From Nicotiana tabacum (taxonomy: Eukaryota > Streptophyta > Magnoliopsida > Solanales > Solanaceae), in contig NC_134082.1 of assembly GCF_000715075.1 (NCBI RefSeq), forward strand, positions 63,952,466 through 64,016,465: a DNA stretch of 64,000 nucleotides, written 5' to 3'. Below the pieces are notes generated by a model, which worked only from the letters and a program-made list of their open reading frames with translations, searched no databases and was not told where the DNA came from. Shown piece by piece: positions 8,468 through 35,710 of the stretch (the stretch's first letter is position 1; every line of letters begins with the position of its first letter). The position numbers and the translations under genes are program-made.

Positions 8468-9504
8468 TGTCATGCCCCAAATATGAAGAGGCGTGGCTGG
8501 CACTCGGTTCCACACTCAGCCCGAGCGTACCACTCTATAACTGTGAACTTTGGAGGGGTAACCCTCAACTTAGTCCGATGAGGCCATATTCTGAATCATC
8601 TTAGAATAATGTCTCTCTCATATGTGGGGTAAACATACCCAAAATGTGATATATATAACTGTGTAGGCCGATAAAGCCGCCATGAACATCTACTAATATA
8701 AAAATATACAAGACTTGTCTACAAACCTCTAGAGATAACTGAACTATACCATGGTCGGGACAGGGCCTCGACCTACCTATCAAACTTGCATATATAAAAT
8801 GGACTCCAAGGTCTAGACCTGGTAACTCCAAGGAAGTGGAGCTTACCAACCAAGCTAATGTTTGACTCTGTCTGCTGGGAGGGTCTGTCCAACTGTCAAT
8901 GAGGACATGCAAGCATGAAATGCAGCGTCCCTAGAAAAAGGGACGTCAGTAAGAAAACAATGTACCGAGTATGTAAGGTAACAGAATAATTGAAAGCTGA
9001 AACTGAACTGATAACTGAAAGTAACTGAGAGTCAAAGATAATCTGAAGATATGCTTACTTGCTGATACTGACTCGACTCTCTCAATATAGTAAGTAAAAT
9101 AGCTTTTCGGCCTTATAAAGCTTGGTATGTATAACGCTCAGCCGTAGTAGGCTCTCTCATAGGCGCTCGACCATACTAGGCTCCATATCTCGGCCATTCT
9201 GGGCTCATTCGTAGGCGCTCAGCCACAGTAGGCTCGGTATATAACTCACCATTTGATAAGAGGTTGCCTAATAGGGACCTGCCCATCGATTATAACTCGA
9301 TGGTGGTAAGAATACTGTAACACTACTCTCTGCTCTCTTGGCTGACAGAAGACAAAACTAAACCAAATATGAAGTCCGATAAGGGAGAATGTTGTAACTT
9401 ATGAGACTAAGAAAATGTAAATAAATTCAGGAATATGAACTTCTCTTTATGTCTCGTTATCAAACACATGCAGTTACTGGATCATGCCAAAATGAAGGAA
9501 AGGA
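8468..9504 (+). repeat. Left inverted arm
   Basis: About 1.04 kb that reads as the inverse of 12117-13198. Strong landmarks shared by both arms are the CCCGAGCGTACCACTCT block near the end, the GGTCTAGACCT/AGGTCTAGACC block, and the CTTCTCTTTATGTCTCGTTATC block at the inner edge. Apparent ORFs in the arms are mirror images of each other and show no known domain. Confidence 0.85.
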
Positions 9505-12116
9505 TTAGCCTTAACATACCTTAACCTCATTGAGTCCTTAATAGCTTCCAAGAAACTCTTCAAACAACCCAACTCAGTCTACTATAGCATAATGAGATTC
9601 AAAATCAGTGCTGGGTAAAGGCTAAGTCTGTAACTTAAGCTAGTAACTTGTTTATGTAAATTTAGGCAGCATCTCCCCGGTAATAAGAGCCTCGTCTAAT
9701 ACCATATACCAATAACAATGACCAGAGAAATTCATCAATACAAAATTATCAATAACAAGACACCATAAAACAATTAGAAGTCACAACTACTTCACGGCGA
9801 GTTGCAAACTCCAATTGGAATTCGTATACCGCATATAACCCCTTAAAAACTTCTTACTTTAACATAATTGTATCATTAACATAATAATGAATTCATTTAT
9901 CAATGATTCCAACCTTATACCATATGTTTATAACAAAGAAAATACAACTCCAATTATCCTCAATTAGCAATTGTATTCACTAGTTCATGTCTAGTCCATC
10001 CATTTAACTTAATCAATGTCAAGATAACCTTAATCACATGAAAGAACACAATATAATTACCTCCTACATTGGATGCAAGTCGAAATCCATATTATATTTA
10101 TCTTACAATAGCCCAACACACTCCAATCACTTCATACCCAAAACAACAACTATAGTAGTGTCAAACACCCCGAAAATGTTACAAAGAAAGATTAATCTAC
10201 CATTTCACCATTATGTGATATTTCTCCACACCATTTATCCTTCAAAACTCAATTAAACAACATCAAAATAGATAGACCAAAAGCAACACGAAACAACCTA
10301 CAAAACAGTCCACTACAAGTCAAATAACTCGAACTCATGGCTTCCAATCACCGTCCGGTGAGTTCTAACTATGAGAAAATGAATTTATCAACATTCCTTG
10401 ATATTTAAATCTCAGAAAGTAGACGTTTTCTTAACTATAAAGTACCTTCCAAAACTCAAAGTACAAAAAAAGAGACGATATAGCGATACTTACGTCGTAG
10501 GGATCGTTTTAGTGTTACCGCTTCTTGATTTCGTACACGGGATGTTAATCCTATCTGAAACCCTTGAAGAGAGCTTAAGTTAAGTTTAGGGGTGTTCTAT
10601 AGTTGTTTTCCATGGATAAATGAAGAGAAAAAACCACATAGGGATTATATATCAACTTTGGAAAAGTCAAAGAGGTGCTAGCTTGGCACTCTCTCATTGG
10701 CCCATCTTTAAATACTTATATCTTTTTATCCTGATGTCGTGTGAATGAACGGTTAAGATATTTGGAAATTATATTCCAAGACCTTCAATTTGGTAAATTA
10801 AAATGTCCAAAAAATACCTCATATAACACACGAAATATATTGCTCAAAAAGCTTTAGTAACTCACCTACTTGTCACCTATGCAGTCTGCACGGTCTTGTA
10901 AAACTACAAATATCTCTTTACTCTGATGTCGTATCGATAAATGGTTTAATGCGTTAGAAACTAGACTCGTAGATCTTCAATTTTATACATGGTTTATCCC
11001 ATAATTCCAAGTATATTGGGAGAATCATTCCGCTATATTTGACCTAATTTTGAGCACATTTATGAATGTAACTTGTGATGACCTTTGTCAACTTTTGTTC
11101 CACAACTCACTTGACTTTAAAACGTAACACAAAGATATCATAGGGCTTACATAACCTCCTTATAATGTTAATAACCCTAGTATCACCCCCACAATGCATG
11201 TTATAACATTCCAAACATATCAACTTTCAACGAAACTTATTTTTCGTCAATTATTTTTTTTTCTTCTAAGCCTTTCAACCCTCTTGGTACTTGTTATCAA
11301 TGATATTAAATATTTGTAACTCACAAGGTAACATGGCTAACTTACTTTATATACTTTCAAGGATGATCTCATTTCTGATCTTACATCAATTGACTTACGA
11401 CATATTTTTACGTACGAAAACATAGGTTGTAACATCACTCGCCCCTTTGGAATATTCGTCCTCGAATGTTGACTGATGCGCTTATCAGTCTCATAATTTA
11501 TAGCTCTTAGAAAAATGTTACTGCCTACTTTGCTTTCCATCTAGTCAACTGTTCTGTGAATAAATCCAAAGGCTAGGGCATTCCCTCCTTTAGGCCTCTT
11601 TATCACACCGCGAATTGTTTTTGGAATTCTTCTAATCTACTAACTCTTACGACCTTCTATCATGCAGCCCGCACGTCTTTGTACTTTTATGTGCGCCTAT
11701 GCGACTCTTCCGTCCTTCTACCTCCAGCTTTTAGCCAATCTCTAGGCCTCACTTTGGGAACATATACAAAACTATGACAAGTTACCCCTATAGGCATCCA
11801 TAGGTGTACTGAAGTTCTTAGCTCCGTACTTATCAAAATTACGACTATTGCTATATCTTGTTTCGTAGCCTCGGTTAGATATGCTTATGGATTTATTACA
11901 TCTAGGTAGGTCATACTATACAATAACACTTCATTTTATTATTACAGAGGTTTGCTACCCAACTCCAGGTTACTCTCTCAGTGCTTATTCTATATGTATA
12001 AATCTAGTTCTTCCTAATTACTGTTCATCTTAAGATTCAGCCTAATCTCATCTCATACTTTGTAACATTCATCCATCTATTGTTGATTCACCTTAATGTT
12101 GATCTATAATCTACAC
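9505..12116. other. Middle of the inverted-repeat element, no coding sequence recognised
   Basis: AT-rich DNA of 2.6 kb without any ORF resembling a transposase, gag or pol. It is therefore non-autonomous if it is a transposon. Confidence 0.6.
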
Positions 12117-12286
12117 CTTTCCTTCATTTTGGCATGATTCAGTAACTACATGTGTTTGATAACGAGACATAAAGAGAAGTTCATATTCCTGAATTTATTT
12201 ACCTAGTCTCATAAGTTACTGCATTCTCCCTTATCAGACTTCATATTCAGTTTAGTTTTGTCTTCTGTCATCCAAGAGAGCAGAGA

Positions 12287-12340
<54 letters not shown>

Positions 12341-13198
12341 TTCAATTATTTTCACCACCATCGAGATATAATCGATGGGCAGGCCCCTATTGGGCAACCT
12401 CTGATCATATGGTGAATTATATCCGAGCTACTATGGTCGATCACCTATGAGCGAGCCCAAAATGGCCGAGATATAGAGCCTAGTATAGCCGAGTGCCTAA
12501 GAACGAGCCTAACGACTGAACAGTTACACATACCGAGCCTTATAAGGCCGGATAACTATTTTACTTACTATATTGAGAAAGTCGAGTCAGTATCAACAAG
12601 TAAGCATATCTTCAGATTATGTTTGACTCCTAGTTACTTTTAGTTATTATATTATCAGTTTAGTTTCAGCTTTCAGTTATTCTGTTGCCTTACATACTCA
12701 GTACATTATTTCGTACTAACGTCCCTTTTGCGGGGGATGTTGTATTTTATGCATGCAGGTCCTCATTGACAGTTGGACAGACCCTCCTAGCAAACAGAGT
12801 CAAACATTAGCTTGGTTGGTAAGCTCCACTTCCTCGAAGTTACCAGGTCTAGACCTTGGAGTCCATTTTATATATACAAGTTTGATGGGTAGGTCGAGGC
12901 CTTGTCCCGACCATGGTACAGTTCAGTTATCTCTAGAGGCTTGTAGACGAGTCCTGTATATTTTTTCTATCAGTAGATGTTCATGGCGGCTTTATCGGCC
13001 TTTATAGTTATATATATCAACTTGTGGGTATGTTTACCCCACAAATGAGAAAGACGTTATTTTAAAACAATTCAGAATATGGCCGCATCGGCCTAAGTTG
13101 AGGGTTACCCCTCCAGAGTTTACAGCTACAGAGTGGTACGCTCGGGTCGAGTATGGCACTGAGTGCCAGCCATGCCTCTTCAAGTTTGGGGAATGACA
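12117..13198 (-). repeat. Right inverted arm
   Basis: Inverse counterpart of 8468-9504, slightly longer because a TA microsatellite has grown in this arm only. Confidence 0.85.
12289..12336. repeat. (TA)n microsatellite in the right arm
   Basis: About 23 TA units. The left arm has no such run at the matching place, so it expanded after the arms separated. Confidence 0.9.
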
Positions 13199-15660: not shown

Positions 15661-15766
15661 ATAAATTGTGTCGTGTATAACGCAATTCCTACGACGGCTT
15701 TTTCATTTTTGACATTCCGATTATGTAGTATCAAATGTTTAAAAGTGGAGTTTCATTGAACTATAC

Positions 15767-16497
15767 TGTATACGGTAAAATCAGAGGGTCCAATTTTCCG
15801 TTGTTATGGTGCCTCGTAAACATATTTCACAGGTTCGAGAATAGGGTCAAGGTTCACTCTCGAGGGCTATCGACGCTCGACCTCGGGGCGATGCAGACCA
15901 ATGGCTATGATGGAAAAGTGGAGAGCTCCCAAGGCACATAACTAGAGCTGACAAAGTCTAGTGAGCTAAATTCAGACCCGAATCATGACATCAACTAGCT
16001 GTCCCATCTCCATATCTTTGTAATAAATGTATTTGTACTATTTGGGGATTTTCCCTCATATATAAAAGAGATCCTTGTCATTTTGTAGTCACATGTTGCT
16101 CAATAAAAAAATATACAAGAACATTCTCTCTGCTTTCTAACATATTCTCTTGATCTCATTACTTCATTTATTGCTCATATTTATTGTGTTCTACTTATTG
16201 TTTATTATTTATTGCTTATTATTGGCCATAAAGAGCCATCATTAATTTTATTATAATTGTTATTCGTCCATCGACTACCCTTGGCAAGCACCAGACTCGA
16301 CCCCGAGGCCCCGAATAAGCAAGCTCGAGGCCCCGATCGACAACCATTCAGCTCGGTTAACATCTCGTTTTTAAGATCTTTTCTTGATTCCAAGTACTTC
16401 ACTTATCTATTGTCCTAACAACTAGCATAAAAATAGATCACATATTTTTAGAACCACAAAATCAAATTTAATTGTTGTTACCATTTCACGGTAAACA
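15767..16497 (+). repeat. 5' LTR of element B
   Basis: A 731 bp TG...CA repeat matching 23487-24220. The TATA box TATATAAAAG at about 16058-16067 would start the sense transcript. Confidence 0.93.
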
Positions 16498-16616
16498 GTT
16501 TGGGGCCCACCGTGGGGCTAAAAATAATAGTGATTATTTTATTGCTGGTTTTACTACACAACGCAAGTTATCTTTCACACTTTTTCTTGTCCAAGATCTT
16601 TGATTTCAGGTGAAAA
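16498..16616 (+). promoter_or_regulatory. Conserved leader of element B
   Basis: From the PBS to the gag ATG this leader is close to identical with 51223-51339 of element E, including GCTAAAAATAATAGTGATTA, TTATCTTTCACACTTT, CTTGTCCAAGATCTTT and TGATTTCAGG. The leader seems better conserved than the LTRs, suggesting a function such as RNA packaging or splicing. Confidence 0.55.
16501..16518 (+). promoter_or_regulatory. Primer-binding site of element B
   Basis: TGGGGCCCACCGTGGGGC, three bases after the LTR. It is the same site as in E (TGGCGCCC...) with one C to G change. Confidence 0.75.
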
Positions 16617-16880: not shown

Positions 16881-17683
16881 TTATTGGGGGGACCGACATT
16901 CTCTAAGGACCCATGATCAAACGGATAAAAATATTCGCTATAATAGAGGGGTCGATCCGAGACTGGATGACCGAAGGCACCCTTGCATTCAACGAGGAGG
17001 ATCTCAAGACCTTGGCAGAACTACACAACGACGCGCTGGTAATTTCATTTCTTTTAAGCAACATTCGAATTAAACGTGTGCTTGTGGATCTAGGCAGCTT
17101 GGCCAACATAATCAGATCAAAGGTAGAAGAATAGCTTGGGTTGCTCGATCAGATCGTACCCGCCTCCCGGGTCCTCCACGGCTTCAACATGGCCGACGAA
17201 GTAACGAAATGAGAGATCGCCCTCTTGGTTGACATGTACGGTACAGTTCAGAACACCAAGTTCCACATCATCGGCGGTGACATGAGGTACAATGCATTGC
17301 TTGGCAGGCTGTGGATACACAGCATGAGGGTAGTGCCGTCAACTCTGCATCGGATGATGAAATTTCCAACAAAGTATGGTATAGCAACCATATATGGAGA
17401 ACAACATGCGGAAAAAGAAATATTCGCGGTTTACCAGGAGGCATCGAATCCCATACACTCCACCTCGGATGAGTCTGGGAGCATACAGATCCCCGAGGAT
17501 GATGAACAAGATTTCCTTGCTCCTCAAACTTTCGTTGCCCCCAAAGAGTCGGATGCAACAAAATCGATAATTGAAGAACTGGAGCAAGCTGTTTTGATCG
17601 AGCATCTCCCGGATCGGAAGGTATATCTAGAAACGGGATTAACCCCCAAACTCAGGAAAAAAACTCATTCAATTCCTTGTTAA
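16881..17683 (+). pseudogene. Protease region and RT lead-in of element B
   Basis: Frames give NDALVISFLLSNIRIKRVLVD and DLGSLANII, the retropepsin region with DLG replacing the catalytic DTG. LGLLDQIVPASRVLHGFNMA and FHIIGGDMRYNALLGR then follow, as in element A. From 17225 to 17683 the frame is open for 152 codons and ends in a Glu/Asp-rich linker. Stops at about 17133 and 17210 and a frame change break it. Confidence 0.8.
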
Positions 17684-17689
17684 TAACAT

Positions 17690-18620
17690 TGACTGTTTCG
17701 CTTGGTCCCACTTAGATATGACAAGACTCCCGTAGGAAATAACCACCCACCGATTGAGTGTTGAACCCAGGTTCAAATTGGTGAAGCAAAAAAGAAGACC
17801 CTAGTTCGAAGTAAAACATGCATTCATCAAGGACGAGGTAACGAAACTCCTTAAAATAGGGTCTATTAGAGAGGTAAAGTACCCCAAATGGCTGGCCAAC
17901 ATAGTGGTAGTGCCCAAAAAGGGAAATAAATTAAGAATGTGTGTAGATTATAAAGATTTAAATAAGGCGTGCCCCAAGGATTCGTTCCCATTTACCTAAC
18001 ATCGATCATTTGATCGATGCTACGGCCGATCATGAGACCCTCACCTTTCTCGATGCCTAATCGGGGTATAATAAAATTCATATGAACCCCGAGGATAGGG
18101 AAAATACTTCGTTCATCACAAAGTATGGTACCTACTGTTACAATGTAATGCCCTTCGTGCTGAAAAACGCAGGGGCTACGTACCAACATCTAGTTAATAA
18201 AATATTCTAGCATCAAATAGGAAAATCCATGGAAGTTTTATATTGATGACATGCTAGTTAAGTCCCTGCGCACAGAGGACCATTTGACTCATTTGCAGAA
18301 AACATTCGACATCCTTAGAAGTTACAACATGAAGCTTAACCCCGAGAAATGTGCCTTCAGAGTGGGTTCGGGCAAATTCTTAAGCTTCATGGCATCGAAC
18401 AGGGGGATCGAGATCAACCCCAACAAAATCAAGGCCATTAAAGATATCACGATGATAAATAATGTAAAGGCCGTGCAATAGCTGACAGGGCGGATAACGG
18501 CTCTGGGCAGATTCATATCAAGGTCATCAGACAGGAGTCATCATTTCTTCTCTTTACTCAAAAAGAAAAACAACTTCGAGTGGACTCCAGAATGCCAGCA
18601 CACCTTAAAGGAATTGAATA
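17690..18620 (+). pseudogene. Reverse transcriptase remnant of element B
   Basis: Recognisable blocks over several frames: CFAWSHLDM (17697), EVKYPKWLANIVVVPKKGNK (17875), RMCVDYKDLNKACPKDSF (17935), NPEDR (18084) and the catalytic region with YIDDMLV split by a frame change near 18240. LTHLQKTFDILRSYNMKLNP, CAFRVGSGKFLSFMASNRGI and LGRFISRSSD follow, again over frame changes. The last RT-like words (NNFEWTPECQHTLK) end near 18620. RNase H and integrase do not follow. Confidence 0.85.
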
Positions 18621-20736
18621 TTTAACTAGTCCGCCTTTGGTCCACACGCCACCTAGAAGGGTTTTACCGGCAAGGTTTTTAATGAGGCAACATCCATATG
18701 CCACCTAAGGAAGACTCAACAACTATTCAAGGCTCCCTTTGCAATCAACCTTGAATACCGGGGGGCATCCCCCCGGAAAGTCACTTACTCGGAGAAGCCA
18801 AGATATGCCAAAAGGGGTATCGATAGGGCAATAATGTACCGGTCCAAACGGTCGAACGAACCGTGTTCGTATAGAACAATTGAGCCCTTAACAGCAAAGG
18901 CATGTATACCTGTACCAAATAATCAAAGTATACTTCCCAAAAGCATTTTGCGTTTCAAGAAAACTCGGTATTTCTTTGCAAAAAACGTCCCGAATACTTG
19001 GGGACTGGCGTCAACAACTCAAAATAGTACGACCCCCGGGTCGAAGCTTCAAACATGTAAGCCCTCAATAAGGCAACAAAAAGATCACAAAATAGCTCGA
19101 GAGCCAAAAACGTCCCGAACACTCGGGGATTGGCATCGAAAATTCAAGGCCACATGACCTCTGGGTCGGAAACTCTGAAATCATAAGCCCTCAATGAGGC
19201 AATACCAAGTTTACAAGTAATAGCTCCCGAGCCGAGAAATCCTTGGCGACTCGGGGACTGTCGTGAATCGCCACCTCCATCGACTTATCAAAACCCGAAG
19301 CCATAAGACCACATGAGGGCAACCTCGGTCTCATAACACCTATATAAGGCAACAACAATATCAGTAAGACCTCAAGCAAGGCATAAACCACACTTGCACC
19401 AAGTGACAATATCTGTAAGACCTCAAGCAAGGCATGAACAATACTTGTACCAAGTATCCAAAACTGTAAAACCTCAAAGGCATGTAAAACTTGTAAGACC
19501 TTATTAAAGGCATAAACCCGATCTCAAAGTTAAGGCTCTTTTGAACTTATAAGACCCTTAAAAAGGCATGCCCTCGATATAGACACCGAAACTACTTCAC
19601 TCAGGACTGAAAGGCTCCGGCCAAACACAAATGAGTATGGTCACAAGGCTGTACCAGCAAAACTAACGCGACTCGGGGACGCCAGACCGTTGCTATAAAA
19701 TCATAGGCCTTCAATTACCTCGAATATACTTCGAAAAGAACCAGTTAAACAGTCTACCCTCGACATAGGCAAAGAGCTTCGACCATGTTAGCTCCAACTA
19801 TAAGGCTTCGAGATACTCAGCCACCGAGCAAAACCTCCCGAGGTGCTCGATCATCGCCATATAACGGCTCACAATCGAGGTTCCTATCAAACCGTCGAAG
19901 AGTCAGGCAAACACAATTTTAAAAAGTCCTTAACGAGAGAAAAATAAAGCCTATAAAAGGTTGTACCGACCCAAAACATAAGAGCCAGTATCGCCAACAC
20001 TAAAATTAAAGGTTGTACTGACCCAAAGCGTAAGAGCCTTGTCGCCAGCCCATACAAAAGATCGTACTGACCCAATGCGTAAGAGCCTAAGGGCCAGCTT
20101 TAAATTCAAAAACTTGAGGGTCAAATGAGCTCAAGTCGAAACCCGATTCGGAGACTAAACCCAAAACAGTTAACTAAACATGCCTAAGAGCAAAATCATA
20201 AGAGCCATTGTCGTAGCCCATACAAAAGGTCGTACTGACCCAACGCGTAAAAGCCTAATGGCCTGCTTCAAATTCAAAAACTTGAGGGTCGAATGAGCTC
20301 GAGTCAAAACACTATTCGGGGACTGAACCCAAAACAGTCAGACTAATCATGACTACGAGCAAAATAGTAAGAGCCACTGTCGCCATCACTAAAATTGAAG
20401 GTCGTACCGACCGAACGTGTAAGAGCCACTGTCGCCAACGCTAAAATCGAATGTCACAGTGAACCAACGTATAAAAGCCAGGTCTAACCCGTGAACACTC
20501 GGGGACCGACTTTCGACCGTTATGGGCCGCTCAGCAATAGCAAAATCCCGAGGGTGTAACCCAAGGTCTAAGATCTCAAATCAATTATCAAAAGTATCAC
20601 ATATTATTCTCAAAGGCAAAGGAGAAAAGAAATGTTAGAAAACGAAAAGCATGTTATACATATGGGTCGCAGAGGTATATTTACAAGGCTTTTGAAAAAC
20701 CCTTACAAGGAAGGGGCTAAATAGAACCTTAATCTA
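18621..20736 (+). other. Repeat-rich spacer of element B
   Basis: No coding region. It begins with a CGGGGGGCATCCCCCC palindrome at about 18759. It then carries short diverged repeats: GTAAGACCTCAAGCAAGGCA units (19350-19510) and GTAAGAGCC-TGTCGCCA units alternating with GTCGTACTGACCCAA (about 19920-20460). The same two repeat words occur in the matching spacer of E, in the same orientation. Confidence 0.7.
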
Positions 20737-23200
20737 TCATCGAGCCTGCGTCTTTGACGGCTCCGCCGAAGGTTGTGACCCAATGGTTTCGGCTATAGTA
20801 CCAAGACCTTCAACGGCCTCTTCTCCTCGGGGGATTCCACCTTCATTCTCATCGTCTTCTAAGCCACTACCCGGCACACCTCCGAAAGCAAACAGGGCAG
20901 CATCTTTCTTCTCTAGGGTCTTCACCCTCTCGAGCTCGGCAGACAGATTGATATCCCCTGCACGCATGTCCTCAAGAGTCCGCCTCCGAGATTCTAACCG
21001 AGCATGCTCCACGGCTCAAGTCAATTTCAGTTCAGCCTCCTCAGGCACTCTCTTGGTTTGAGCGTTTATTCCAACAACACCCTCTTTGTGCACAGATATA
21101 AGCACCTCAGCTTCGATTTTGATCCCGGATAGTGCATTAACTAACTCAGAGTGGAAACCTCTATATTTGTCACTATCCTCCCTCGCATCTTGAAGCTGAC
21201 GCCTAACTAAGGCCATATTTTCCTAGAGGGTATCTCTCTCACAAGTTATCTCTCTGACGCGCCGTTTGAGTTCAAGGACTTCAGAGTCTCTGGCTCGGAG
21301 CTCCTCCCTCAGCAGGGAACCTTCCTTCTCAAACTGCATGAATCAGATCCAAGATGTCAAAACACTGGGATCTGACAAACATTCAGACTATAGCAAACGG
21401 AAACTAGTTAACCTGTTCAACAAGATAAGCCTTCTCACGCTCATGACGGGTCACCTCAGCCTGAAATCGGGCAAATGTGTAATTGTAAAGAACCTTGGCC
21501 TGAAGCCATGAAAAAGACAAGTTAGAAAGACAAAGATCAGAACGACAGACAGGACTTACAAGAACTACCTGCTCACAATGCCTGCTCATCTCGCCGAAGA
21601 CGAGTGAAGCATCGAGCTCAAGAATTCCCTCGGGAGAGGCTGAAGGCCTTTCAGGAACATCTCTGTCTCCGATAGGCACCCCCGCATCGGAAGATTCTTC
21701 ATTCGGGACATCTTACATTCCCTTAGGAGGTAAGATCATTCCCTGAGGGGAATCACTCACGACAACGACACCAGCAAGGTTAATTAGGGCCATCTCTTGT
21801 CCATGCAGGGCTCCAGAACTGGGCTCCTCCGAACCACCTACCGAATGCATCCCAGCTCGAAGGGTATTTTGGCCATCGGCCGGCTCAGGGATGCCACCCG
21901 ATGCTCCCTCAGTGGCCACTCCATTTCGAAGTTGGACTGCGACGACATCATGCTTCGGCTCAGGAGCCACTATCTCTACGGCATGAGGGTCGATCAGGTT
22001 TTCCTCTCCCTCGGACGGTATCAAGAAATTATTTTCCCCCTCACCTTCAACTCGGGGACTTTTTGCTGCTTCCGGAGTTAGGGCTGCCGGGTCAACCTTA
22101 GTTTCTTCCACCTTGATATTCTTGGATTGTAAAGGTTCATTCGACGGTTCCCTTTGTCTTTTCTTCCCTTCATCGGGTCCCAAAGTACCCTCTTCACCAA
22201 GTGATGTTCCCTTCATCAAGGGGACCTCCCCTAGACCTACACAAATGCAAGAGGTAAACACAGGGAGTGAGAGCGCTACCAGTAGCAATTCAGATTAAAA
22301 GGTACGACTGCAACAGGGGTAAAGGCTCACCATAGTCCTTAGCTTCTCATCGGGCTTAGGACAGATCACGCCACACTCCCTCAATATATGGGCAAATTAA
22401 GTCCAGCCGACCGACCCAACCGAGAGGTCCGTGACCGCGCCGGGGTAAATTGCTATGGCTGCATTAGCAGAAGAAATTAAGTTCGTGGAAAAATGTACCT
22501 AAAAAGAAGCAAGAAATGCTAAATAACATATCTACTTACATTCCATGTTCCACCTCTCGGGGAATGACATCCTTTCCACCGGGATCAGGTTTGAAGTCCT
22601 ATCTTGGACAAAACGGCTCATCCACCCTCTGTTCCCTACTTCTTCGATGCAAGCAAAAAGGGCCCTCGAAGCTTGGTAGTGGAGCTTAATCAGACCCCCA
22701 CGAAAGAGATGGGGGCTATACATCTTGATAAGGTGATCGAGGGTGAAGGGAATCCCCTCAATCATGTTCACATAGTACCTGATCATGTAGACAATGTGCC
22801 AGAATGAAGGGTGAATTTGGCCGAGGGTCACTTGATACCGTTGGCAGAAGTCGAGAATCACGGGATCAATCGGAGGCAAGGATGGCCCTACTGGCCCAAG
22901 GATAAATGGGTATGTATACTCACTGAGAAAATCGACTTTGTATGTCGTTATATCCTCCTCCCGAGTAGGGATCTCCACAATCACCGCGTCCCCCAGTGAC
23001 AATCAGTCCTCACCCTTTCGACGTTTGTTATTAAGCTAATATACTGAGACACATCTCTCGACCTTGAAATCGGAAGCCGTTGCAAAAAATCCTGGAACGC
23101 ATTCCTCAGCAAGAGGAGGCATTGCCGCTTTGCCTTTAGATGGAAGCGAAGAGGAGGAGGTCACGTTCTCCTGAGAAGCAGAGGCGGAAGTTTTCGCCAT
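20737..23200 (-). pseudogene. Antisense accessory gene of element B
   Basis: The gene runs opposite to gag-pol. The ATG at 23198-23200 starts MAKTSASASQENVTSSSS. After one break, a 156-codon frame (22532-23002) reads FCQRYQVTLGQIHPSFWHIV and YYVNMIEGIPFTLDHLIKMY, resembling the putative gypsy-type transposon domain (PF04195-like). Exons then seem to follow introns with GT/AG ends: ATGGAAT/GTAAGT to TGCAG, GTGAGCC to TGTGTAG, GAGCAG/GTAGTT to TTCAG, GAACAG/GTTAAC to ATGCAG. A charged, Pro/Glu-rich middle (21713-22240) leads to a coiled coil and ESRRRTLEDM near the C-terminus. Stop at 20737. In-frame stops near 23036, 21250 and 21016 indicate decay. Function unknown. Confidence 0.7.
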
Positions 23201-23275
23201 TCCTAAAAGATTTCAGAAGAGAAAGGGAAGTTGCGTTTCGAAGAAAGAACACACGTAAAGGTAAAGAACGAGAAT

Positions 23276-23302
23276 AGAAGTATTTATAGTATTTATAGAG
23301 GC
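23276..23302 (-). promoter_or_regulatory. Putative TATA boxes for the antisense gene of element B
   Basis: The minus strand reads CTCTATAAATACTATAAATAC, two TATA-like boxes about 80-100 bases before the ATG at 23200. The antisense gene may therefore have its own promoter, inside the element and next to the 3' LTR. Confidence 0.55.
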
Positions 23303-23486
23303 TCCACACGCACATTGAAGGAGGGCAAATGACAACCAACTGTCGTAATCAGTGCAAAGGTTTTCAAGGGCTATGTGTACGCCGTCTTTTGGCACCTTAT
23401 GAGTGACGTCGTTACGGAAGTACCATAGGGGCAGGAATTCAAGGTCGATTCTTATCACTTTCAGTCTAATAAACGTGAGGACTATC

Positions 23487-24220
23487 TGTATACGGTAAAA
23501 TCGGAGGGTTCAATATTCCGTTGTTGTGGTGCCTCGTAAGCATATTTCACAGGTTCGAGACTAGGGTGGAGGTTCTCCCTCGAGGGCTATCGACGCTCGA
23601 CCTTGGGGCGATGCAGCCCAACGGCTATGATGGAAAAGTGAGGAGTTCCCAAGGCCCATAACTAGAGCTGACAAAGTCTAGTGAGCTAAATTCAGACCCG
23701 AATCATGATATCAACTAGCTATCCCATCTCCATATCATTGTAATAAATGTATTTGTATTACGTTGGGATTTCCCCTCATATATAAAGGGGATCCTTATCA
23801 TTTTGTAGTCACCTGTTGCTCAATAAAAAATACACAAGAAAATTCTCTCTGCTTTCTAACATATTCTCTTGATCTCATTACTTCATTTATTGCTCATATT
23901 TACTGTGTTCTACTTATTGTTCATCATTTATTGCTTATTATTGGCCATACAGAGCCGTCATTGATTTGATTATAATTGTTAGTCGTCTATCGACTACCCT
24001 CGGCAAGCATCAGACTCGACCCCGAGGCCCCGAATAAGCAAGCTTGAGGCCCCGATCGACAGCCATTTGGCTCGGTTAACATCTCGTTTTTAAGCTCTTT
24101 TCTTGATTCCAAGTACTTCACTTAGCATCTATTGCCCTAACGACTAGTATAAAAATAGATCACGTATTTTTAGAACTACAAAATCAAATTTAATTGTTGT
24201 TATTATTTTCATGGTAAACA
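23487..24220 (+). repeat. 3' LTR of element B
   Basis: A 734 bp match to 15767-16497, with TATA box TATATAAAGG near 23779. The bases before it, CGTGAGGACTATC, match CGCGGAGACTATC before the 3' LTR of E, so this is the polypurine-tract position even though it is not purely purine. Confidence 0.93.
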
Positions 24221-26333: not shown

Positions 26334-29300
26334 TGTCACACCTCTTTTTTCGCCCGCGCCGCCTCAAAAGGGCGCGGAAGGGAGTTTTTTTCCAATTAAA
26401 GGACAATCGAAATGAGATTTATTATTTATTTTAGAGTCGCCACTTGGGAGATTTAGGGTGTCCCAAGTCACCAATTTTAATCCCGAATCGAGGAAAAGAA
26501 TGACTCTGTATTACAGTCCGCGAACCAGAAATCCGGATAAGGAATTCTGTTAACCCGGGAGAAGGTGTTAGGCATTCTCGAGTTTCGTGGTTCTAGCACG
26601 GTCGCTCAACTGTTATATTCGGCTTGATTATCTGATATAATACATATTATAAACTTATGTGCAAATTTTATCCTTTAACCGCTTTTATTATTTTTTATTT
26701 ATTGTTATTATTTTACGGAGAATTGCAACATTGTGAAAACGTATTTCAAACCACGTCGCAATCAATGCACCCGTGGTTATCGACATATTTCGACTCCGTT
26801 GAGATTTGGATTTGGGTTACATAAATGCACACCCATATTTAAGAAAATAATTTGTTAAAGACGCGCCTAGAGCGACTAGCGTATTGTTGTTTTGGGAAAG
26901 ACCGTAAAATTTCACTAGACGGACAACTCTGATGTTCAAAATAATTAATGCATACATTTGTGAGGGCCCCGCAATCTACATATTTTACTAGGCGAGGCTT
27001 GTCTCATTTATTTTAAATGGACAAATCTTAAAGCGACTACATTTTTCTATTAAAATTAGTCTCTAAAATAAAGAAAGAAAATCCTAACTAATTACGAGCT
27101 TTTTTTATTTATTTATTTATTTAAGAAAGCATGGCATACTAATTGCTAGATTAATACAAATATTGATGAAAAGGAATTTTACTCAAAAATTCGAAATTAT
27201 AAATAAAATAAAAATTCGACAACTAATATTCAAAAGAATCAAATATATCTACATTAAAACTCGCATTGTTATAAAAAAAACCATTGAGATTAATTATTCA
27301 CAACCATTTGAAACTATATTTAACCATAATTACTAATGTTTATTAGAAAGTTTATTAAACTTAAACATTCTTCTAATCTTATTTGAACTCAAATCGTGCC
27401 TTAATGCCTAATTCACGAAATTCAGTTTAAATTCATACCTTAGCTAAATTTAGCTACTTGTTCACGATTAACCTACTATTGATAATCTTGAAACCTTCAT
27501 AACTAGTGAATTAACCCGTTTTGCCAAACAAATTCATTACAGACTAACTTATGTTATTTTCTCTTATTCCAATTATTATTCAGTAATACATGAAATAGCC
27601 TAAATACAATCAATAAAAGGAACAAAGAAAAGCGACATTAAAACTTCAAAATTCAATTCTGCATATGTATTCATGCTTCCACATTATTAGCTTGCAACAG
27701 CTAGTATTAAAGTCGTGTACCTGATATTGGAAGCAAAAGAAAAGGGAGATCAGCAGAAATTCAGTAGCATACAACAACAGCAACCCCAACAATCAGTAAC
27801 AACCAGCAACGAGAAACCAGTGACAGATTTTAAAATCAAGATAAAAATCCAGAAACACCGACAACAATCAACGGACAGAAGCCAAGGGAATCTTTTTAGA
27901 TTTTGAATGACTAATTAATGTTCAACCCTTAATTTCTGAATCTGTATATCAAAGTATTTAGATTGTATATCAGGTGTATACTATTCTTATTTTGATTTTC
28001 CAGAATGTTTTTCTTTTTATTTTTGGAGTCTTAGTATTTTCGGAATTTTTCCCTCTCTTCAATATTCAGCTTTTTTTTTATCTTCCTTCTTCTCTCCTCT
28101 TTTTCTTCTCTCCTCCTTAAATCTGTCCAAGTCCCCTATTTATTACCATCTTTCAGCATTTTTTAAAAATTAATACCCACTATCTTCCACTCATCCCCTT
28201 TTAATCTCACTACCTAATGTTTTTTCCCCTATTATATTAAACAAATACATTATCCTCCCCCCATTATATCTTGTTCCCCATGCCTATATTAAACAATTGC
28301 ATTATTCCCCACCATTATGTCTTGTCCCCCACCATATACTATTTTAATATTATAAAAAAAATATTTAATCTTAATGGACAGAGCACTCAAAAATAAATAA
28401 TTGTTCAGATTTTTAATTCCAAAAATACCCCTTCGCCCTTACTAAAATTACCACTTTATCCCTGAACGTACTGCAATTTACCAATCTACCCCGTCATAAA
28501 CAATTCAGCTAATCAATTCTAACCAAAATATAGCAGCTATAATCAATTCCTAATCAAATTTTATGAACAAATTCAAACTAAATGATGAACAACAAAGAAA
28601 CAACTTGAATTATTTTGACTGAACAATGTTTTTTAAATAACAAACCTATTTTCAGATTCATCAACAATAACAAACAAATATATTCAAAGCATGAGCTCAA
28701 ATTCAAATTAAACTTAAACAAAATAAATAAACAGATTCAAATCTTTAAACTCAAAGAATCAATTGATCTTCAAATTAAATCCAACAAAATTATAACAAAG
28801 ATACATGATTCAAACTAAATCAAAAAATTAAAAAACCAAAACATAAACTCACATTAAATCACTAGATTAAAAACGAACTTCAAACAAAAAATGAACATGA
28901 ATTAAATCTATATTAAACAACAAACATGGATGATTCAAGCGATTAAACTGACATATTTCTATATTACAACTAAATTCTTTTAAACGAATAAAAACAACCG
29001 AAGAAGAAATAATTAATTGAATTTCAACTTGAATCTAACAACATTAAAAATTTCTAAAAAAAATACATAAAAATACATGAAACAAACTGAAGAAATAATT
29101 AATTAAATTTCAATTTGAATCTAATAACATTAAAATTAAACTAAAAATTTCTTTTAATAAATAAAACACATGAACAAACTAAAAAACTAATTAATTAAAT
29201 TTCAATTTGAATCTAATAACATTAAAATTAAACTAAAAATTTCTTTTAATAAATAAAACACATGAACAAACTGAAAAACTAATTAATTAAATTTCAATTT

Positions 29301-30872
29301 GAATCTAATAACATTAAAATTAAACTAACGATTTCTTTTAATAAAAACACATGAACAAACTGAAAAACTAATTAATTAAACGATGAACACGAACAAACAA
29401 GAATCAAACATTCACCGATTTTAGATCCGAGAATATCAAAACAAAATACGGACAAAATGAAACTCAAACCCACTAATCGGATCGAAATGACGAAGAACTT
29501 GAATGAAAGCAAATCTGTCCAGAGACAATTATTGCACCAAAATCACTCGAATCTTCCCGGAAACTTAAACAATAGACGAAGCTCGATGGAGGGGTGTTTG
29601 GCGACGACGAGAACTGAAGCAGCAGCAACAAAGCAGCCATGGCCGCGCAAAGCTGGAGAAGAAGAAGCATCGAGTAGCAGCAACAAAGCAGCCATGGCTG
29701 CGCGAAGCTGGAGAAGAAGAAGCATCGAGCAGCAGCAGTGATGGAGCAGCAGTAGCGACGAGCCTAGCAGGAGCGGAGCAGCAGCCATGGTGCGACGAGA
29801 TCTCGAGCTTGAAGATGCAGCCATGGCAGTGAGGATCTTGTCCATGGATGGACGTAGCAGGAGTAGTAGCGACAATGACGAAGAAGAAGAAGCATCAACA
29901 CAACCGTGAAGGAGGAGAAGCAGCAGCGTGCGACGGGGTGGAGAAGAAGACGCAGCAGCAGACATGAGTGTCGAGCTCAAGCTCGAGCTTGACGAAGAAG
30001 ATGAAGCAGTGGCAGCGAGGTCTTGTATGGACGAAGAACGAAGGAGGAGCAGCAGGGTCTGTTTGGACGAAGAACGAAGGAGGAAGCAACAACCATGAAC
30101 GTTGGTTGTTCATGGTGGAGCTGGTTTTGCACTATGTATGTGTGTGTATGTGTTGATGTGTGTGTGTGTGTGAGTGTGACGGGGTGAAGGGGAAGGGGGG
30201 GAGGGCAACAGCCATGGCTACTTGTAGTTTTTTGGGGTCTTTAGGATAGTGAAGGAGAAGAGAGAAAGAGAGGGGGCGAATGGGATTTTTTAGGGTTTTT
30301 CTTGTTTTTTGTTTTTGTCAAATGTAAGATAGGGGGGTGTTGGGTATTTGGGTTATGGTCCGGGTCGACCCGGTTTGAAATGAACCGGGTCATGGGGAAG
30401 GTTGGGTATTTTTTGGGCTTGTGGCCTGAATTTGAAGAAGAGCCCAATTCCGATTTTCTTTATATTTTTGCTCTCTTTTCTTCTTTTATTTTTCTAAAAC
30501 TAAATTCTAAAAATCCTTAAATTATTATTAAGTTATAAAAGCGCAAATTAACTCCCAATAACAATTAACGCACAATTAAGTAATAATTAAGCATAAAATT
30601 GTACATTTGGACATTAAATGCTAAAAATGCAACGTACATTATTTTTTTTTATGATTTTATCATTTTTGTAAAACAAACTTAAATAAATACTAAATGAAAA
30701 TGCGACATATTTTATATTTTTATTAATTTAAACAAATAAACATGCACAGACAAAAATACAAATAATTATACAAAAATACCACAAAAATACAAACATTGCA
30801 CACAAAGAAAAATTGTTTTATTTTGAATTTTTGGGAGTGATTCTCATATAGGGTTAAAATCACGTGCTCACA
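26334..30872 (-). repeat. 3' LTR of element D (low-coordinate copy)
   Basis: 4539 bp. It holds about three 92 bp AT-rich subrepeats (AATTAATTAAATTTCAATTT..., about 29096-29385) and a GAAGAAGAAGC/AGCAGCAG-rich block (29600-30000) that yields meaningless Leu/Ser-rich ORFs. The outer end joins copia gag at 26333/26334. Confidence 0.9.
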
Positions 30873-30888
30873 GCTGCCCCTCTTTGTC
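30873..30888 (-). promoter_or_regulatory. Polypurine tract of element D
   Basis: The minus strand reads GACAAAGAGGGGCAGC immediately before the LTR start TGTGAGCACG. It would prime plus-strand DNA synthesis. Confidence 0.8.
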
Positions 30889-31566
30889 CGAAAACATGAA
30901 GGGTTTTCATGCAAAGATAAAGTGAGCGGATACGAGCGATTTTTGCCCGTTCGAGTACTCCGTGTGAAGTATTTTTGAAAGATTTGACCGAACCTTTGCT
31001 TCAGAGGTTTCCTACATATCCTGGGCTAAACAAGAATCAGGTCAATGTAGTTCGGGAAGTTTTGGTAGCTGGGACTACCATGGGACTGCAATGTTACTGC
31101 TGTTATCACTGCTTACCGATCTCCTTGTTACACCGTGCTTAAAAGAAAACAAGAAGCTAGGCTAGACTACGGATCATAAGATCTCATCTATCTTCAACTT
31201 GTTCTTGTTGCCTTGCTTTATTGTCGGCTTGTGTTTCTTCCGGTGCTTTTTCTTCCGAGAACTTGGGGATGACACTGGCCTTTTGCTTTTCTTAATACCA
31301 GTTTTCATCATTTTGTTCGGTCTACTGGGGATATGGCTTCCTTCATTAAGATTTCGGTGGTTCCCCTGGGGATTAAGCTTCACAGGCCGCTTCTTTCAAG
31401 ACGCATCTTTTCTTTCTTTCTGATTTCTGAATTTGGACTTATGCTGGGACCTCTTGTTGCAACCTTCTGCTTCCCGGTGCTGGGGATTTTTATTGTTTCC
31501 TGCTGGGGATTCCTGTTGTAACCTTCTGCCTTCCGGAGGGGTTACTGATTTCAAGACCTGAAGTAT

Positions 31567-31780
31567 AAGACTGAAAAGTATTCCTCTCGTTATACAGGTG
31601 GGCGCCTGAAACATGAAATGTAAAGACTGAAAAGTATTCCTCTCGTTATACAGGTGGGCGCCTGAGACATAAAATGTAAAGACTGAAAAGTATTCCTCTT
31701 GTTATGTAGGTGGGCGCCTGAGACATGAAATGTAAAGACTGAAAAGTATTCCTCTCGTTATACAGGTGGGTGCCTGATTT
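31567..31780 (+). repeat. 56 bp tandem array, about 4 copies
   Basis: The unit starts AAGACTGAAAAGTATTCCTC and includes GGTGGGCGCCTGA. Copies begin at 31567, 31623, 31679 and 31735, an exact 56 bp period with a few substitutions. Confidence 0.9.
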
Positions 31781-32064
31781 TAACAACAACTTTGAAAAAT
31801 AAAATGCCATTCCTTTCTTTAGGCTGGCGAGATTTCAACAACTTTTAAAAATAAAACGCCTTTTCTCTCTTCAGGCGGGCTCCTGACTTCAACAACATTT
31901 TTGAAAATAAAATTTCATTCCTTTCTTTAGGCTGGCGAGATTTCAACAACAACTTTTAAAAATAGAACGCCTTTCCTCTCTTCAAGCGGGCTCCTGACTT
32001 CAACAACTTTGAAAAATAAACGCCTTTCCTCTCTTCAGGCGGGCTCCTAATTTCAACAACACAC
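31781..32064 (+). repeat. Alternating ~60 bp tandem array, about 5 copies
   Basis: Units pair AACAACTTTTAAAAATAAAA with CGCCTTTCCTCTCTTCAGGC or TTCCTTTCTTTAGGCTGGCG, so two variants alternate. Confidence 0.8.
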
Positions 32065-32070
32065 AATATC

Positions 32071-32245
32071 CTATTCGAGGGCGGATGAACCCAACATATC
32101 CTATTCGAGGGCGGATGAACCCAAAATATCCTATTCGAGGGCGGATGAACCCAAAATATCCTATTCGAGGGCGGATGAACCCAAAATATCCTATTCGAGG
32201 GCGGATGAACCCAAAATATCCTATTCAAGGGCGGATGAACCCAAC
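32071..32245 (+). repeat. 30 bp tandem array, 6 copies
   Basis: The unit is CTATTCGAGGGCGGATGAAC followed by CCAAAATATC. The spacing is exactly 30 bp. Because 30 is a multiple of three, it gives open frames on both strands that are only repeat artefacts. Confidence 0.95.
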
Positions 32246-32248
32246 TAG

Positions 32249-33200
32249 GAAGTGCGTCTCCTACGAGTAAAACTTGTATGAACCAAAATCAGGAAGTGCG
32301 TCTCCTAAAGCAAAATATAACCTGAAAGACCCAGCCTAGGAAGTGCGTCTCCTAGGGGTGAAACTTCAATGATTCAAACTAGGAAGTGCGTCTCCTACAA
32401 ATGAACTTAAATGAACCAGACTAGGAAGTACGTCTCCTAGGGGTGAAACTTAAATGATTCAAACTAGGAAGCGTGTCTCCTACAAATGATCTTAAATGAA
32501 CCAGACTAAGAAGTGCGTCTCCTAGGGGTGAAAACTTCAATGATTCAAACTAGGAAGTGCGTCTCCTACAAACTTAATTTAGGAAGTGCGTCTCCTATGC
32601 ATGAAATTAAACTTAGGAAGTGCGTCTCCTATGCATGAAATAAAACTTAGGAAGTGCGTCTCCTATGCATGAAAATGAATTTAGGAAGTGCGTCTCATAT
32701 GGGGTAAAAGTAAACTTAGGAAGTGCGTCTCCTATGGGGTAAAAGTAAACTTAGGAAGTGCGTCTCCTATAGGGTAAAAGTAAACTTAGGAAGTGCGTCT
32801 CCTATGGGGTAAGATAAACTTAGGAAGTGCGTCTCCTATGGGTAAAACTTTAATGACTTTAAACTAGGAAGTGTGTCTCCTATGCATGAAATCTTAATTT
32901 AGGAAGTGCGTCTCCTATGCATGATATTAAACTTAGGAAGTGCGTCTCCTATGGGTAAAAATAAATCAGGAAGTGCGTCTCCTATGGGAAAAATAACTTA
33001 GGAAGTGCGTCTCCTAGGGTAAAAATAAACTTTTAGGAAGTGCGTCTCTTATGGGTGAAACCTTAATGATTTTGAACTAGGAAGTGCGTCTCCTATGCCT
33101 GAAAATAAACTTAGGAAGTGCGCCTCCTATTGGTAAAACTAAACTTAGGAAGTGCGTCTCCTATTGGTAAAACTAAACTTAGGAAGTGCGCCTCCTATGC
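32249..33200 (+). repeat. Tandem array with core AGGAAGTGCGTCTCCTA, 26 copies
   Basis: I counted 26 cores between 32251 and 33200. Spacing is about 30-43 bp, with variable linkers such as TGCATGAAATTAAACTT or TGGGGTAAAAGTAAACTT. The core ends are inverted (TAGGA...TCCTA), so each could fold. Neighbouring copies share linkers, showing local expansion. Confidence 0.95.
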
Positions 33201-35710
33201 GTGAACCATTTCCTTAAAAACTTGTGTTGTCTTCCCTCACAACTGCCAGGGATAACACTGTTGGGGAATTATTTACTTACCTGTTGGGGGATAAAATGTT
33301 ATCAGCTAGGGATAACGCTGTCGAGGATAACACTGCTGGGGGATTTTGATTCTTCAAAACTAGTGCTTCACTCTTCGGAAGGCTGCTGGGAATGGCACTG
33401 GCCGGCCTTTTGCTTCTTCGAGCATAAGTTTCATCCTTTTGTTCCGTCCGCTGGGGAACAACTTCCTTCATTAAAACTTGTTATGCTGGGGGTAACACTG
33501 GTTCAAAGACCACTTCCCTTGAAACTGGTGCTATCTTTTATTCTTCCCCAAATGGGTACCTGACTTCCAGAAAATTTTAAATGAAAGGAAAATTTTCTGC
33601 CCCAGTTTGATAATCTCTTGTGGCATGCATTTCCGTCATCATTGCCATTTCCTTTACCTGTTTCAAATCAAACAAAATTTGTTAGTTTAAAACGCGGTGG
33701 TTGGTTGTGATACTCCTACTGGGATGGCTTTTCCCTTTTTCCTTCCCTGCTCTGCGTTCCAAAACTTGTTGGGGATGATATTATTTGCTGGGGATAATCC
33801 CTTTCTGATGGGGATATCCCTCTTCTTTTGCAGCATAGCTCGGAAACTGGCATTTCCCCGACCTTTTAGTCTCGTATGAATTTCCCAAATCATGCTCATT
33901 GTTCTCCTTGCTTTGTTCTTTCTTGATTTAGACCATTTGGATGTTCTAATCGGATATGGTCTTGCATAATTGGAAAGCTGATGGCAGATTTTGAAGTCAT
34001 TTCTCACTTGTTCTGACCAAACAAACTCTACTGGGCAATGTTTCTATGAAAAGGGAACAGAATAAAAAGACAAAGAAAAAAGATGACTCTTTAACAAAAG
34101 AAACTATAAATAAAAACCTATCAAACGCAGATACCGACTCTAATAATCATGACATGCGCATGTGGTCTATCCTCTGCCGTCAATCGTTTTTCAAGATCTT
34201 CATTTGGCAATTCCCCATCTGATTCTCAATCTTATTCAACTTGTAGTGCCCGAAGGGTTTTCACTATCAAGCCTCTCTCATTTTTTTTTCTCTCAGCTTT
34301 CATCGCCTTATGGTGCCCGCGAAGGTTTTCACCGATAAGACTCTCTCATTTGTATCACTTTCCAGCTAGGGATTTGGAGTGTTGCCGATATGACTCTCTC
34401 TACTGGGGATTAGAGTCCTTTCTGCTGTGTAACAGAGTGTTATGTTCACCAATAAGACTCTCATTTGTCTGACTTGGCATCTTTTGAAGACTGATCAGAA
34501 GGTCTTTCTTTGGACCGTAATGTGGGTTTTGGATAGGCTAGAAAGAAATGGTATTAAAGGCTAAAAAACAAAATAAATTTGGGGTTTAAAATTACAACCT
34601 TCGGAACCATATTTGCTTACAACAAGCGCAACCCTTGCCCCCGTTTCTTGCTTGGGGATTTTTTTAATTTTTTTTACTATGCACACTCTGACCATTATGG
34701 CCATTATGCACCCTATGACCGAGCCGTGAAGCGCCTATGTATCCTCTTTGAGGAATCAGGTCAAACGTAGTTCCCAATTCCTCTGTTTTCTTCTGACTTT
34801 CTTTTGTTTTTGTTATCTTTTTTTTTTCTTATTTTCATTTTTCTTTTGTCGTTTTGTTGTTTTCTTTTCCTTTTTTTTCTTTTTCTTCCACATTTGTATT
34901 TCTAACCTTTGCTACTGATTCCGAATGAGGGGTATGAAAGAAAACAAATAAGGCTCAAAGGGTTAACGAAGGATAAATTGTTTAGATAGCAGAATAAAAT
35001 GCCTTCGCCATTCCGGTCTTCAAAACATGCCAAGTGCAAACATCATAATTTAAACAAAGATTTGTAGCCTCTTCTGATGGTGCTGGACTTGACAATTATA
35101 TTCACACATTTGCCTTTTCATTTGTCATCTCTAAAGCGTTGATGGGCAACACTCTCACTCTCATTATCATGAAAGACGAATCTTGCTTTTAACGGTTTTC
35201 TTTGTGTTTTACTTGCCCTAGTTCCGTATGACTCGAGCTCCGAATAATCTCAAACCGTCCTTATTTCCTTTAAATGTTCTGATCACATTTCCGGGGTTTT
35301 ATGATTAACTATTAGGATTAGGCCCAAACTATGTGCGCATGTCATGTCACTAGAATCGGCGCTGAACAAAATGATAAAAGAACTAAACGAAAAGAGGACG
35401 GGAAATAATAAAAGACCGGATTTTGCATTAGACTACCGGTGAAATGGTTTGAATAACAAAACAAACAAAAACAAACCAGAATAAAATCCTAAAATAACCT
35501 GGACAAAACTTAAACAAACCATTGTGGCAAAATGGAAGGATAAGAGGGTTTGACACAAGACAATATTCGAATTACAACCCTAAAAATAATCCAGACAACA
35601 GAAATGACAACAAAATAAGCCATCAAAGATCCTCTCCGGCTGACCCAAAAATGAAGTATCTTTCCAACTACCAAGCATAGCATTTTAACCATTGAGCTCT
35701 ATATCAACAT

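What the first reader, a model, noticed from the sequence alone, without database searches (positions are those of the whole stretch)
20737..23302. Antisense, intron-bearing accessory gene with its own promoter in element B
Seen: a multi-exon gene on the strand opposite to gag-pol, with GT/AG introns, two TATA boxes about 80-100 bases before its ATG, a PF04195-like N-terminal domain, and a coiled-coil end. Known: extra ORFs, some antisense, occur in Tat-lineage elements, function unknown. Inferred: a separate transcription unit convergent with gag-pol, perhaps controlling the element or helping mobilise defective copies.
Basis: partly seen in the sequence, partly recalled or inferred. Interest (0 to 1): 0.75.

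Follow-up and report, generated by a model that had tools for sequence, protein, structure and literature searches.

The report
Spliced antisense gene in tobacco retrotransposon
This is a decayed copy of a tobacco retrotransposon accessory gene that runs backwards to the element's main genes, with its own promoter and introns; such backward genes are already known, but the conserved introns indicate one spliced gene rather than loose reading frames.

Summary
The observation largely holds. Element B (LTRs 15767-16497 and 23487-24220) carries a gene on the strand opposite to gag-pol: TATA 23280-23300, ATG 23200, stop 20737, five exons. Among 40 genomic copies (39 plus this one) the eight splice dinucleotides are kept in 31-40, the deduced frame has about six times fewer stops than the other sense frames, and 33 other copies have one TATA 123-130 nt before ATG. 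The window copy is dead (stops, frame changes, exon 1 30 nt short); its second TATA is a private 9-bp duplication. A younger sister family in the same tobacco genome has introns 1-3 at the same places and phases, and its domain evolves under constraint (dN/dS about 0.17); two elements looked at have gag, RT, RNase H and integrase on the other strand. The 156-codon block has no Pfam match, but relatives match PF04195 (Transposase_28) below its cut-off. This is the antisense TRP28-type accessory gene of Retand-like elements, already described in other plants; the conserved multi-exon architecture I did not find in the papers I could open. Most likely it makes a nuclear protein acting in trans on the element; that function is inferred. 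No RNA evidence was available.

The parts
15767..16497 (+). 5' LTR of element B; flank TATAC (15762-15766) against TATAT after the 3' LTR, 4 of 5 bases, likely target-site duplication
   Evidence: Self-BLAST 91.8% identity; global alignment, K80 0.080
16498..16518 (+). putative primer binding site next to the 5' LTR
   Evidence: Position directly after the LTR; assignment from recalled pattern, tRNA not matched by any search
16907..17683 (+). remnants of protease and protease-RT linker (two open stretches 16907-17134 and 17213-17683)
   Evidence: Read by eye; no Pfam match over cut-off, so recalled motif only
17805..18481 (+). reverse transcriptase remnants (17805-17999 and 18221-18481)
   Evidence: PF00078 E 0.039 (below cut-off) and 1.3e-10
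18646..18652 (+). junction at which copy L042 carries about 2.2 kb more (RNase H, second RNase H-like domain, integrase); absent here
   Evidence: BLAST of the window against L042, Pfam on L042 pieces
20020..20338 (.). tandem duplication (151-nt copies 168 bp apart) between pol and the antisense gene
   Evidence: family D19 (84%)
23280..23300 (-). TATA region of the antisense gene; second TATA is a private 9-bp duplication
22540..23200 (-). exon 1: start, low-complexity N-terminus, TRP28-like domain (156-codon open block 22532-23002); 661 nt here, 691 nt the commonest length (11 of 40); frame broken
22459..22539 (-). intron 1, phase 1 (81 nt here and in 14 others; 82 in 23 of 40)
   Evidence: GT 31/40, AG 32/40; lengths; same site and phase in sister family and in Nicotiana gene models P0006 and P0034
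22331..22458 (-). exon 2 (128 nt here, 129 in 32 of 40 copies)
22237..22330 (-). intron 2, phase 1 (94 nt in 37 of 40)
   Evidence: GT 34/40, AG 38/40; same site and phase in sister family
21560..22236 (-). exon 3: basic NLS-like patch KKRQR, acidic/Ser/Pro linker; in-frame TAA in this copy
21500..21559 (-). intron 3, phase 0 (60 nt in 31 of 40, open in frame: may be retained)
   Evidence: GT 36/40, AG 35/40; 1/713 in-frame stops; spliced in sister gene models P0060 and P0061, read into in P0053
21413..21499 (-). exon 4 (87 nt in 39 of 40 copies)
21334..21412 (-). intron 4 (79 nt in 33 of 40)
   Evidence: GT 40/40, AG 39/40; no sister counterpart examined
20737..21333 (-). exon 5: charged, possibly coiled-coil C-terminus, stop TGA 20739-20737; two in-frame stops in this copy
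23475..23486 (+). polypurine tract region before the 3' LTR (GTGAGGACTATC; sister family GTGGGGGGACTATC)
   Evidence: assignment by position and recalled pattern
23487..24220 (+). 3' LTR of element B, about 290 bp upstream of the antisense ATG

Best explanation
A decayed copy of the antisense accessory gene (TRP28/Transposase_28 type) of a Retand-like Tat element in tobacco. SHOWN by sequence comparison: one gene of five exons on the strand opposite to gag-pol, between pol and the 3' LTR, with a TATA element outside the LTR, constrained in its N-terminal domain in a younger sister family, and with the positions and phases of introns 1-3 shared between the two families. INFERRED: RNA polymerase II starts about 30 bp after the TATA, the transcript runs towards pol, introns 1, 2 and 4 (and perhaps 3) are removed, and the mRNA makes a protein of about 726 residues (sum of commonest exon lengths): TRP28-type domain, basic nuclear-signal-like patch, acidic linker, probable coiled coil. 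I think it is a nuclear, self-associating factor that acts in trans on element DNA or chromatin (transcription or anti-silencing; less likely nuclear import of the pre-integration complex). The antisense placement is what lets introns and promoter survive: the packaged RNA is the gag-pol strand, on which these introns are not recognised, so they are copied through each retrotransposition. Four introns then argue that the gene entered the element as genomic DNA, not as a captured spliced mRNA.
For: Splice sites, frame and TATA in 40 copies. Sister family, found with gene model P0053, 12 loci examined: ATG 12/12, intron 2 GT and AG 12/12, intron 1 GT 10/12 and AG 11/12, intron 3 GT 10/12 and AG 11/12; introns 1-3 at the same positions and phases as in the window. 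PPT/3' LTR start 335-340 nt from the antisense ATG in 11 of 12; the pattern missed L051. Two sister elements (L076, L077) have gag, RT, RNase H, RVT_3 and integrase on the opposite strand and a second LTR match, 98.4 and 98.6% over 513 and 558 bp. dN/dS 0.165 in the domain. The two branches' domains are homologous (hhalign probability 100, E 3.4e-46; rows under 60 residues dropped); 8 of 33 members match PF04195, best E 2.7e-4, below the curated cut-off in the 5 whose scores were shown. Nicotiana gene models P0006 and P0034 remove introns 1 and 2 as deduced here; P0060 and P0061 join the exons at intron 3. Basic patches within about 50 residues after intron 2 in 8 of 9 models checked. For maize Grande, the review PMC7264820 (parts 1-2 of 3 read) reports antisense transcription from its own promoter and nuclear localisation.
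Against: No RNA data; gene models are predictions. PF04195 searched over the whole genome gave nothing at E <= 0.001 (it also rang in none of 14 control genomes), and 6 of 6 first relatives had no Pfam match. Outside the domain the window family shows no third-position excess (exon 3: 66, 69, 65; exon 5: 46, 64, 56 shared variable sites at codon positions 1, 2, 3). In the domain the excess among transversions depends on the threshold: p 0.0067, 0.030 and 0.19 for sites shared by at least 2, 3 and 4 copies. Intron 3 is open in frame and intron 2 has few in-frame stops (2.3%). Gene models disagree at intron 3: P0053 reads into it and P0054 uses the acceptor with another donor. The predicted fold of the domain matches nothing in PDB or viral libraries, so no molecular activity can be read off. 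Coiled-coil periodicity is clear in some members only.
Confidence: 0.6

Rival explanations
1. The antisense transcript itself is the functional product: it pairs with gag-pol RNA and limits or tunes the element (dsRNA/siRNA, or copy-number control as in yeast Ty1), and the protein is incidental.
For: The unit is convergent with gag-pol, so overlap is possible; PMC7264820 (part 2 read) raises this for antisense ORFs, and PMC12786077 (passages read) describes Ty1 antisense RNA control.
Against: Coding constraint in the sister family, frame kept in every exon and commonest exon lengths that sum to a multiple of three, conserved splice sites: none is needed for an antisense RNA.
Confidence: 0.15
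2. The protein helps the pre-integration complex enter the nucleus or choose sites (an integration cofactor), not transcription or chromatin of the element.
For: Basic NLS-like patches; suggested for antisense ORFs in PMC7264820 (part 2 read).
Against: No evidence here of packaging or contact with Gag or integrase; a separate nuclear transcription unit does not itself put the protein into particles (inference).
Confidence: 0.2
3. Passenger: a gene captured long ago that is carried along because it sits between pol and the 3' LTR, without function now.
For: The 40 window-family copies are all broken; exons 3 and 5 show no codon-position signal there.
Against: dN/dS 0.165 in the domain among sister copies, 23 of 32 exon-1 copies without any in-frame stop; introns 1-3 and splice sites kept across two families.
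Confidence: 0.05
4. Not one spliced gene but two or three unspliced antisense ORFs (a TRP28 ORF and a coiled-coil ORF), as ORF-based surveys list them.
For: PMC11963269 (parts 1-3 of 5 read) lists 104 antisense ORFs without mention of introns; metagenome entries such as P0002 end just inside intron 1.
Against: Introns 1, 2 and 4 have commonest lengths (82, 94, 79) not divisible by three, although intron 1 is 81 in 15 of 40 including this copy, and carry in-frame stops (7.6, 2.3 and 9.1% of triplets); splice sites of introns 1-3 and their phases are shared across families; gene models splice there.
Confidence: 0.05

Closest known systems
Antisense TRP28 (Transposase_28, PF04195) ORF of Retand-lineage elements (Vicient 2025, PMC11963269, parts 1-3 of 5 read)
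   Same: Antisense to gag-pol, between pol and 3' LTR; TRP28-type domain; coiled-coil-like (Smc) antisense ORFs in some clusters; [quoted passage not shown] non-autonomous members occur
   Different: Here one gene with four introns, three of them conserved in place and phase between two families; domain diverged below PF04195 recognition; that paper's main text holds no 'intron', 'splicing', 'Solan' or 'Nicotiana', and 'spliced' only in a reference
[quoted passage not shown] 2013, not held; known here through PMC7264820, parts 1-2)
   Same: Antisense, own promoter upstream of the gene, nuclear protein
   Different: Sequence relation not tested; whether gene23 has introns could not be checked
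ORF4 of Silene Retand and antisense ORF of rice RIRE2 (through PMC7264820)
   Same: Antisense position; Retand ORF4 has Transposase_28
   Different: Not compared by sequence here
Plant mobile domain (PF10536) ORF of Ogre elements and MAIN/MAIL1 host proteins (PMC6317226 and PMC5418596, passages read)
   Same: Extra ORF of Tat-clade elements; related host proteins MAIN/MAIL1 act in silencing
   Different: Relation not tested: the PF10536 search did not complete (first tried, last)

Membership tests
Tat clade, Retand/Ogre type (Ty3/gypsy) | Second (archaeal-like) RNase H between RNase H and integrase | tested here: met
   Order RVT_1, RT_RNaseH, RVT_3 (RNase H-like), Integrase_H2C2, rve in window-family copy L042 and in sister elements L076, L077; that RVT_3 is the archaeal-like RNase H is my reading. 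Absent in element B itself. Rule from PMC6317226 (passages)
Tat clade, Retand/Ogre type (Ty3/gypsy) | RT phylogeny | not tested
   No reference RT set at hand; Retand rather than Ogre rests on the 3' antisense TRP28-type gene
Retand antisense TRP28 accessory gene | Gene between pol and 3' LTR, antisense to gag-pol | tested here: met
   Window; PPT/LTR start next to the gene start in 11 of 12 sister loci, opposite-strand gag-pol in the two examined
Retand antisense TRP28 accessory gene | PF04195 match over its cut-off | tested here: not met
   Window block: no match; best relative 21.6 bits against a cut-off of 26.2. Homology to those relatives is clear, so kinship with the wider superfamily is inferred, not formal
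Spliced protein-coding gene | Conserved GT/AG, frame across exons, constraint | tested here: met
   constraint clear in the domain, not in exons 2-5 of the window family
Spliced protein-coding gene | Spliced transcript | not testable with these tools
   No RNA reads available; public gene models agree with the splices at introns 1 and 2 and partly at 3

The most novel reading that the evidence does not exclude
The antisense accessory ORFs of Retand elements in general are exons of one ancient intron-bearing gene, preserved because an antisense intron is invisible to splicing of the genomic RNA; the gene was taken up as genomic DNA and makes a nuclear factor that counters host silencing of the element. 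Surveys that look for long single ORFs have split it into TRP28 and Smc-like pieces.
Probability: 0.25. Interest if true: 0.7.

Novelty: new variant of a known kind. Interest (0 to 1): 0.42.

Why it matters
Antisense accessory genes with TRP28 occur in 97% of the recently active Retand clusters surveyed (PMC11963269) and their origin and role are open. Conserved introns give a gene model that predicts which spliced cDNAs to look for, explain why the gene would have to lie antisense, argue against origin from a captured mRNA, and suggest that separate antisense ORFs in published maps may be one protein with an N-terminal domain and a coiled-coil tail.

Full report
WHERE. The window lies on contig C3 of a 4.0-Gb genome. 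Protein hits are Nicotiana, and the contig length recorded for N. tabacum protein P0034 (173,419,127) equals that of G000 contig C10, for P0053 (215,112,738) that of C3 and for P0058 (222,086,288) that of C1: the genome is tobacco. Element B has LTRs at 15767-16497 and 23487-24220 (55 differences in 729 columns, K80 0.080; about 3 to 6 million years at 1.3e-8 to 7e-9 per site and year, rates recalled). Between them on the + strand are reverse-transcriptase remnants and, by eye only, protease remnants; no gag, RNase H or integrase was recognised in the 8 stretches scanned. Copy L042 carries about 2.2 kb more at the point corresponding to 18646/18652, with RNase H, RVT_3 and integrase domains, so element B looks like a deletion derivative. 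Of three copies whose pol side was fetched (of 39), L042 and L043 gave matches and L041 none.

THE GENE. On the - strand the deduced model is TATA 23280-23300, ATG 23200, exons 23200-22540, 22458-22331, 22236-21560, 21499-21413, 21333-20737. I aligned 40 copies: the 39 best others and the window copy. Commonest exon lengths are 691 (11 of 40), 129 (32), 677 (23), 87 (39) and 597 nt (11; 593 counted to 20741 plus four), 2181 nt in all, divisible by three. Splice dinucleotides, stop counts and the TATA are given under the observation check. Six of 40 rows lack the TATA pattern: three have point changes in it and three (L032, L034, L036) have unrelated sequence there. Results against: exons 2-5 have no third-position excess; intron 3 is open in frame; intron 2 has few in-frame stops; 9 of 40 copies have lost the intron 1 donor.

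STATE OF THE WINDOW COPY. It is a pseudogene: exon 1 is 30 nt shorter than the commonest length and, set against relatives such as P0012, changes frame twice (read by eye); exon 2 is one base shorter than the commonest length; exon 3 has an in-frame TAA and exon 5 two in-frame stops. None of the 40 copies is free of stops; pairwise identity has a median of 82.5%.

SISTER FAMILY. The gene model P0053 (N. tabacum) gave 75 exon-1 matches in the listing (counted by hand), 88-97% identical but for one at 80% (a capped list). In the 12 loci fetched by that call, introns 1, 2 and 3 lie at the same places and in the same phases (1, 1, 0) as in the window family, with lengths 87-88, 83-93 and 68-88 (one outlier of 33 at intron 1); intron 4 was not looked for. 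A PPT followed by the LTR start lies 335-340 nt before the ATG on the opposite strand in 11 of 12. Two elements looked at on the other side have gag, RT, RNase H, RVT_3 and integrase antisense to the gene and a second LTR match 98.4 and 98.6% identical over the stretches compared. For selection I used exon 1 of 32 copies: the 12 loci and 20 that I picked from the lower-identity part of the listing. Shared variable sites by codon position are 33, 29, 62 of 266 each (p 9e-5), singletons 64, 70, 52 (p 0.26): constraint in shared changes and none seen in private ones, as expected for an element gene. Mean dN/dS is 0.241 for exon 1, 0.452 for the first 100 codons and 0.165 for the domain (496 non-independent pairs).

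WHAT THE PROTEIN IS. The 156-residue block has no Pfam match over a cut-off; the only weak one is another family at E 0.032. The profile search found 51 relatives, the broader one 280 of which 120 were listed; those named in the listings are Nicotiana. None of the first six relatives matched Pfam; five of ten others match PF04195 at E 2.7e-4 to 0.013, below its cut-off, and 8 of 33 in a further scan, over the stretch homologous to the window block; the branch with and the branch without such matches align with probability 100. So 'PF04195-like' is right as remote kinship and wrong as a direct match. The first predicted model was poor, the second moderate, and no fold search of the second found a known fold. 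A basic patch follows intron 2 in the window (KKRQR) and in 8 of 9 models checked (P0012 has none); that it is a nuclear signal is recalled pattern knowledge.

LITERATURE. [quoted passage not shown] PMC7264820 (parts 1-2 of 3): antisense transcription of Grande from its own promoter, nuclear protein, and a call to look for spliced antisense transcripts. PMC6317226 (passages): second RNase H between RNase H and integrase in Ogre and Retand; Transposase_28 in 23% of Retand elements, plant mobile domain in 57% of Ogre. PMC10817978 (passages): Retand covers 155 Mb (3.9%) of the N. tabacum genome. PMC5418596 (passages): MAIL1/MAIN plant mobile domain proteins act in silencing.

HOW IT PROBABLY WORKS. 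See best explanation. Shown: anatomy, constraint in the domain of the sister family, introns 1-3 shared between families. Inferred: transcription, splicing, nuclear site, action in trans. The orientation argument is logic from the retrotransposition cycle: an intron in the gag-pol sense would be removed at each cycle (the principle of intron reporters, passage in PMC12786077), an antisense one is not.

Noticed in passing
26422-30943 and 39679-44217: Long direct repeats about 13.25 kb apart, 92-99% identical in the blocks listed: either the long LTRs of another element or a segmental duplication.
   Followed up: no
31567-33233: Several short tandem arrays (56-, 30-, 34- and 85-bp units), the 34-bp one built on TAGGAAGTGCGTCTCCTA.
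   Followed up: no
8468-9508 and 12111-13198: Inverted arms of about 1 kb, 81-93% complementary, with 2.6 kb between them.
   Followed up: no
5857-6220: Inverted 77% match to the reverse-transcriptase region of element B (18234-18597), so probably a second related element on the other strand.
   Followed up: no
L045-L055: The sister family looks young: 23 of 32 exon-1 copies examined had no in-frame stop and LTR stretches of two elements are 98.4 and 98.6% identical.
   Followed up: partly
21500-21559: Intron 3 of the window family is 60 nt in 31 of 40 copies and open in frame (1 of 713 triplets a stop): possible optional splicing; sister gene models P0053 and P0060/P0061 differ at the same place.
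   Followed up: partly
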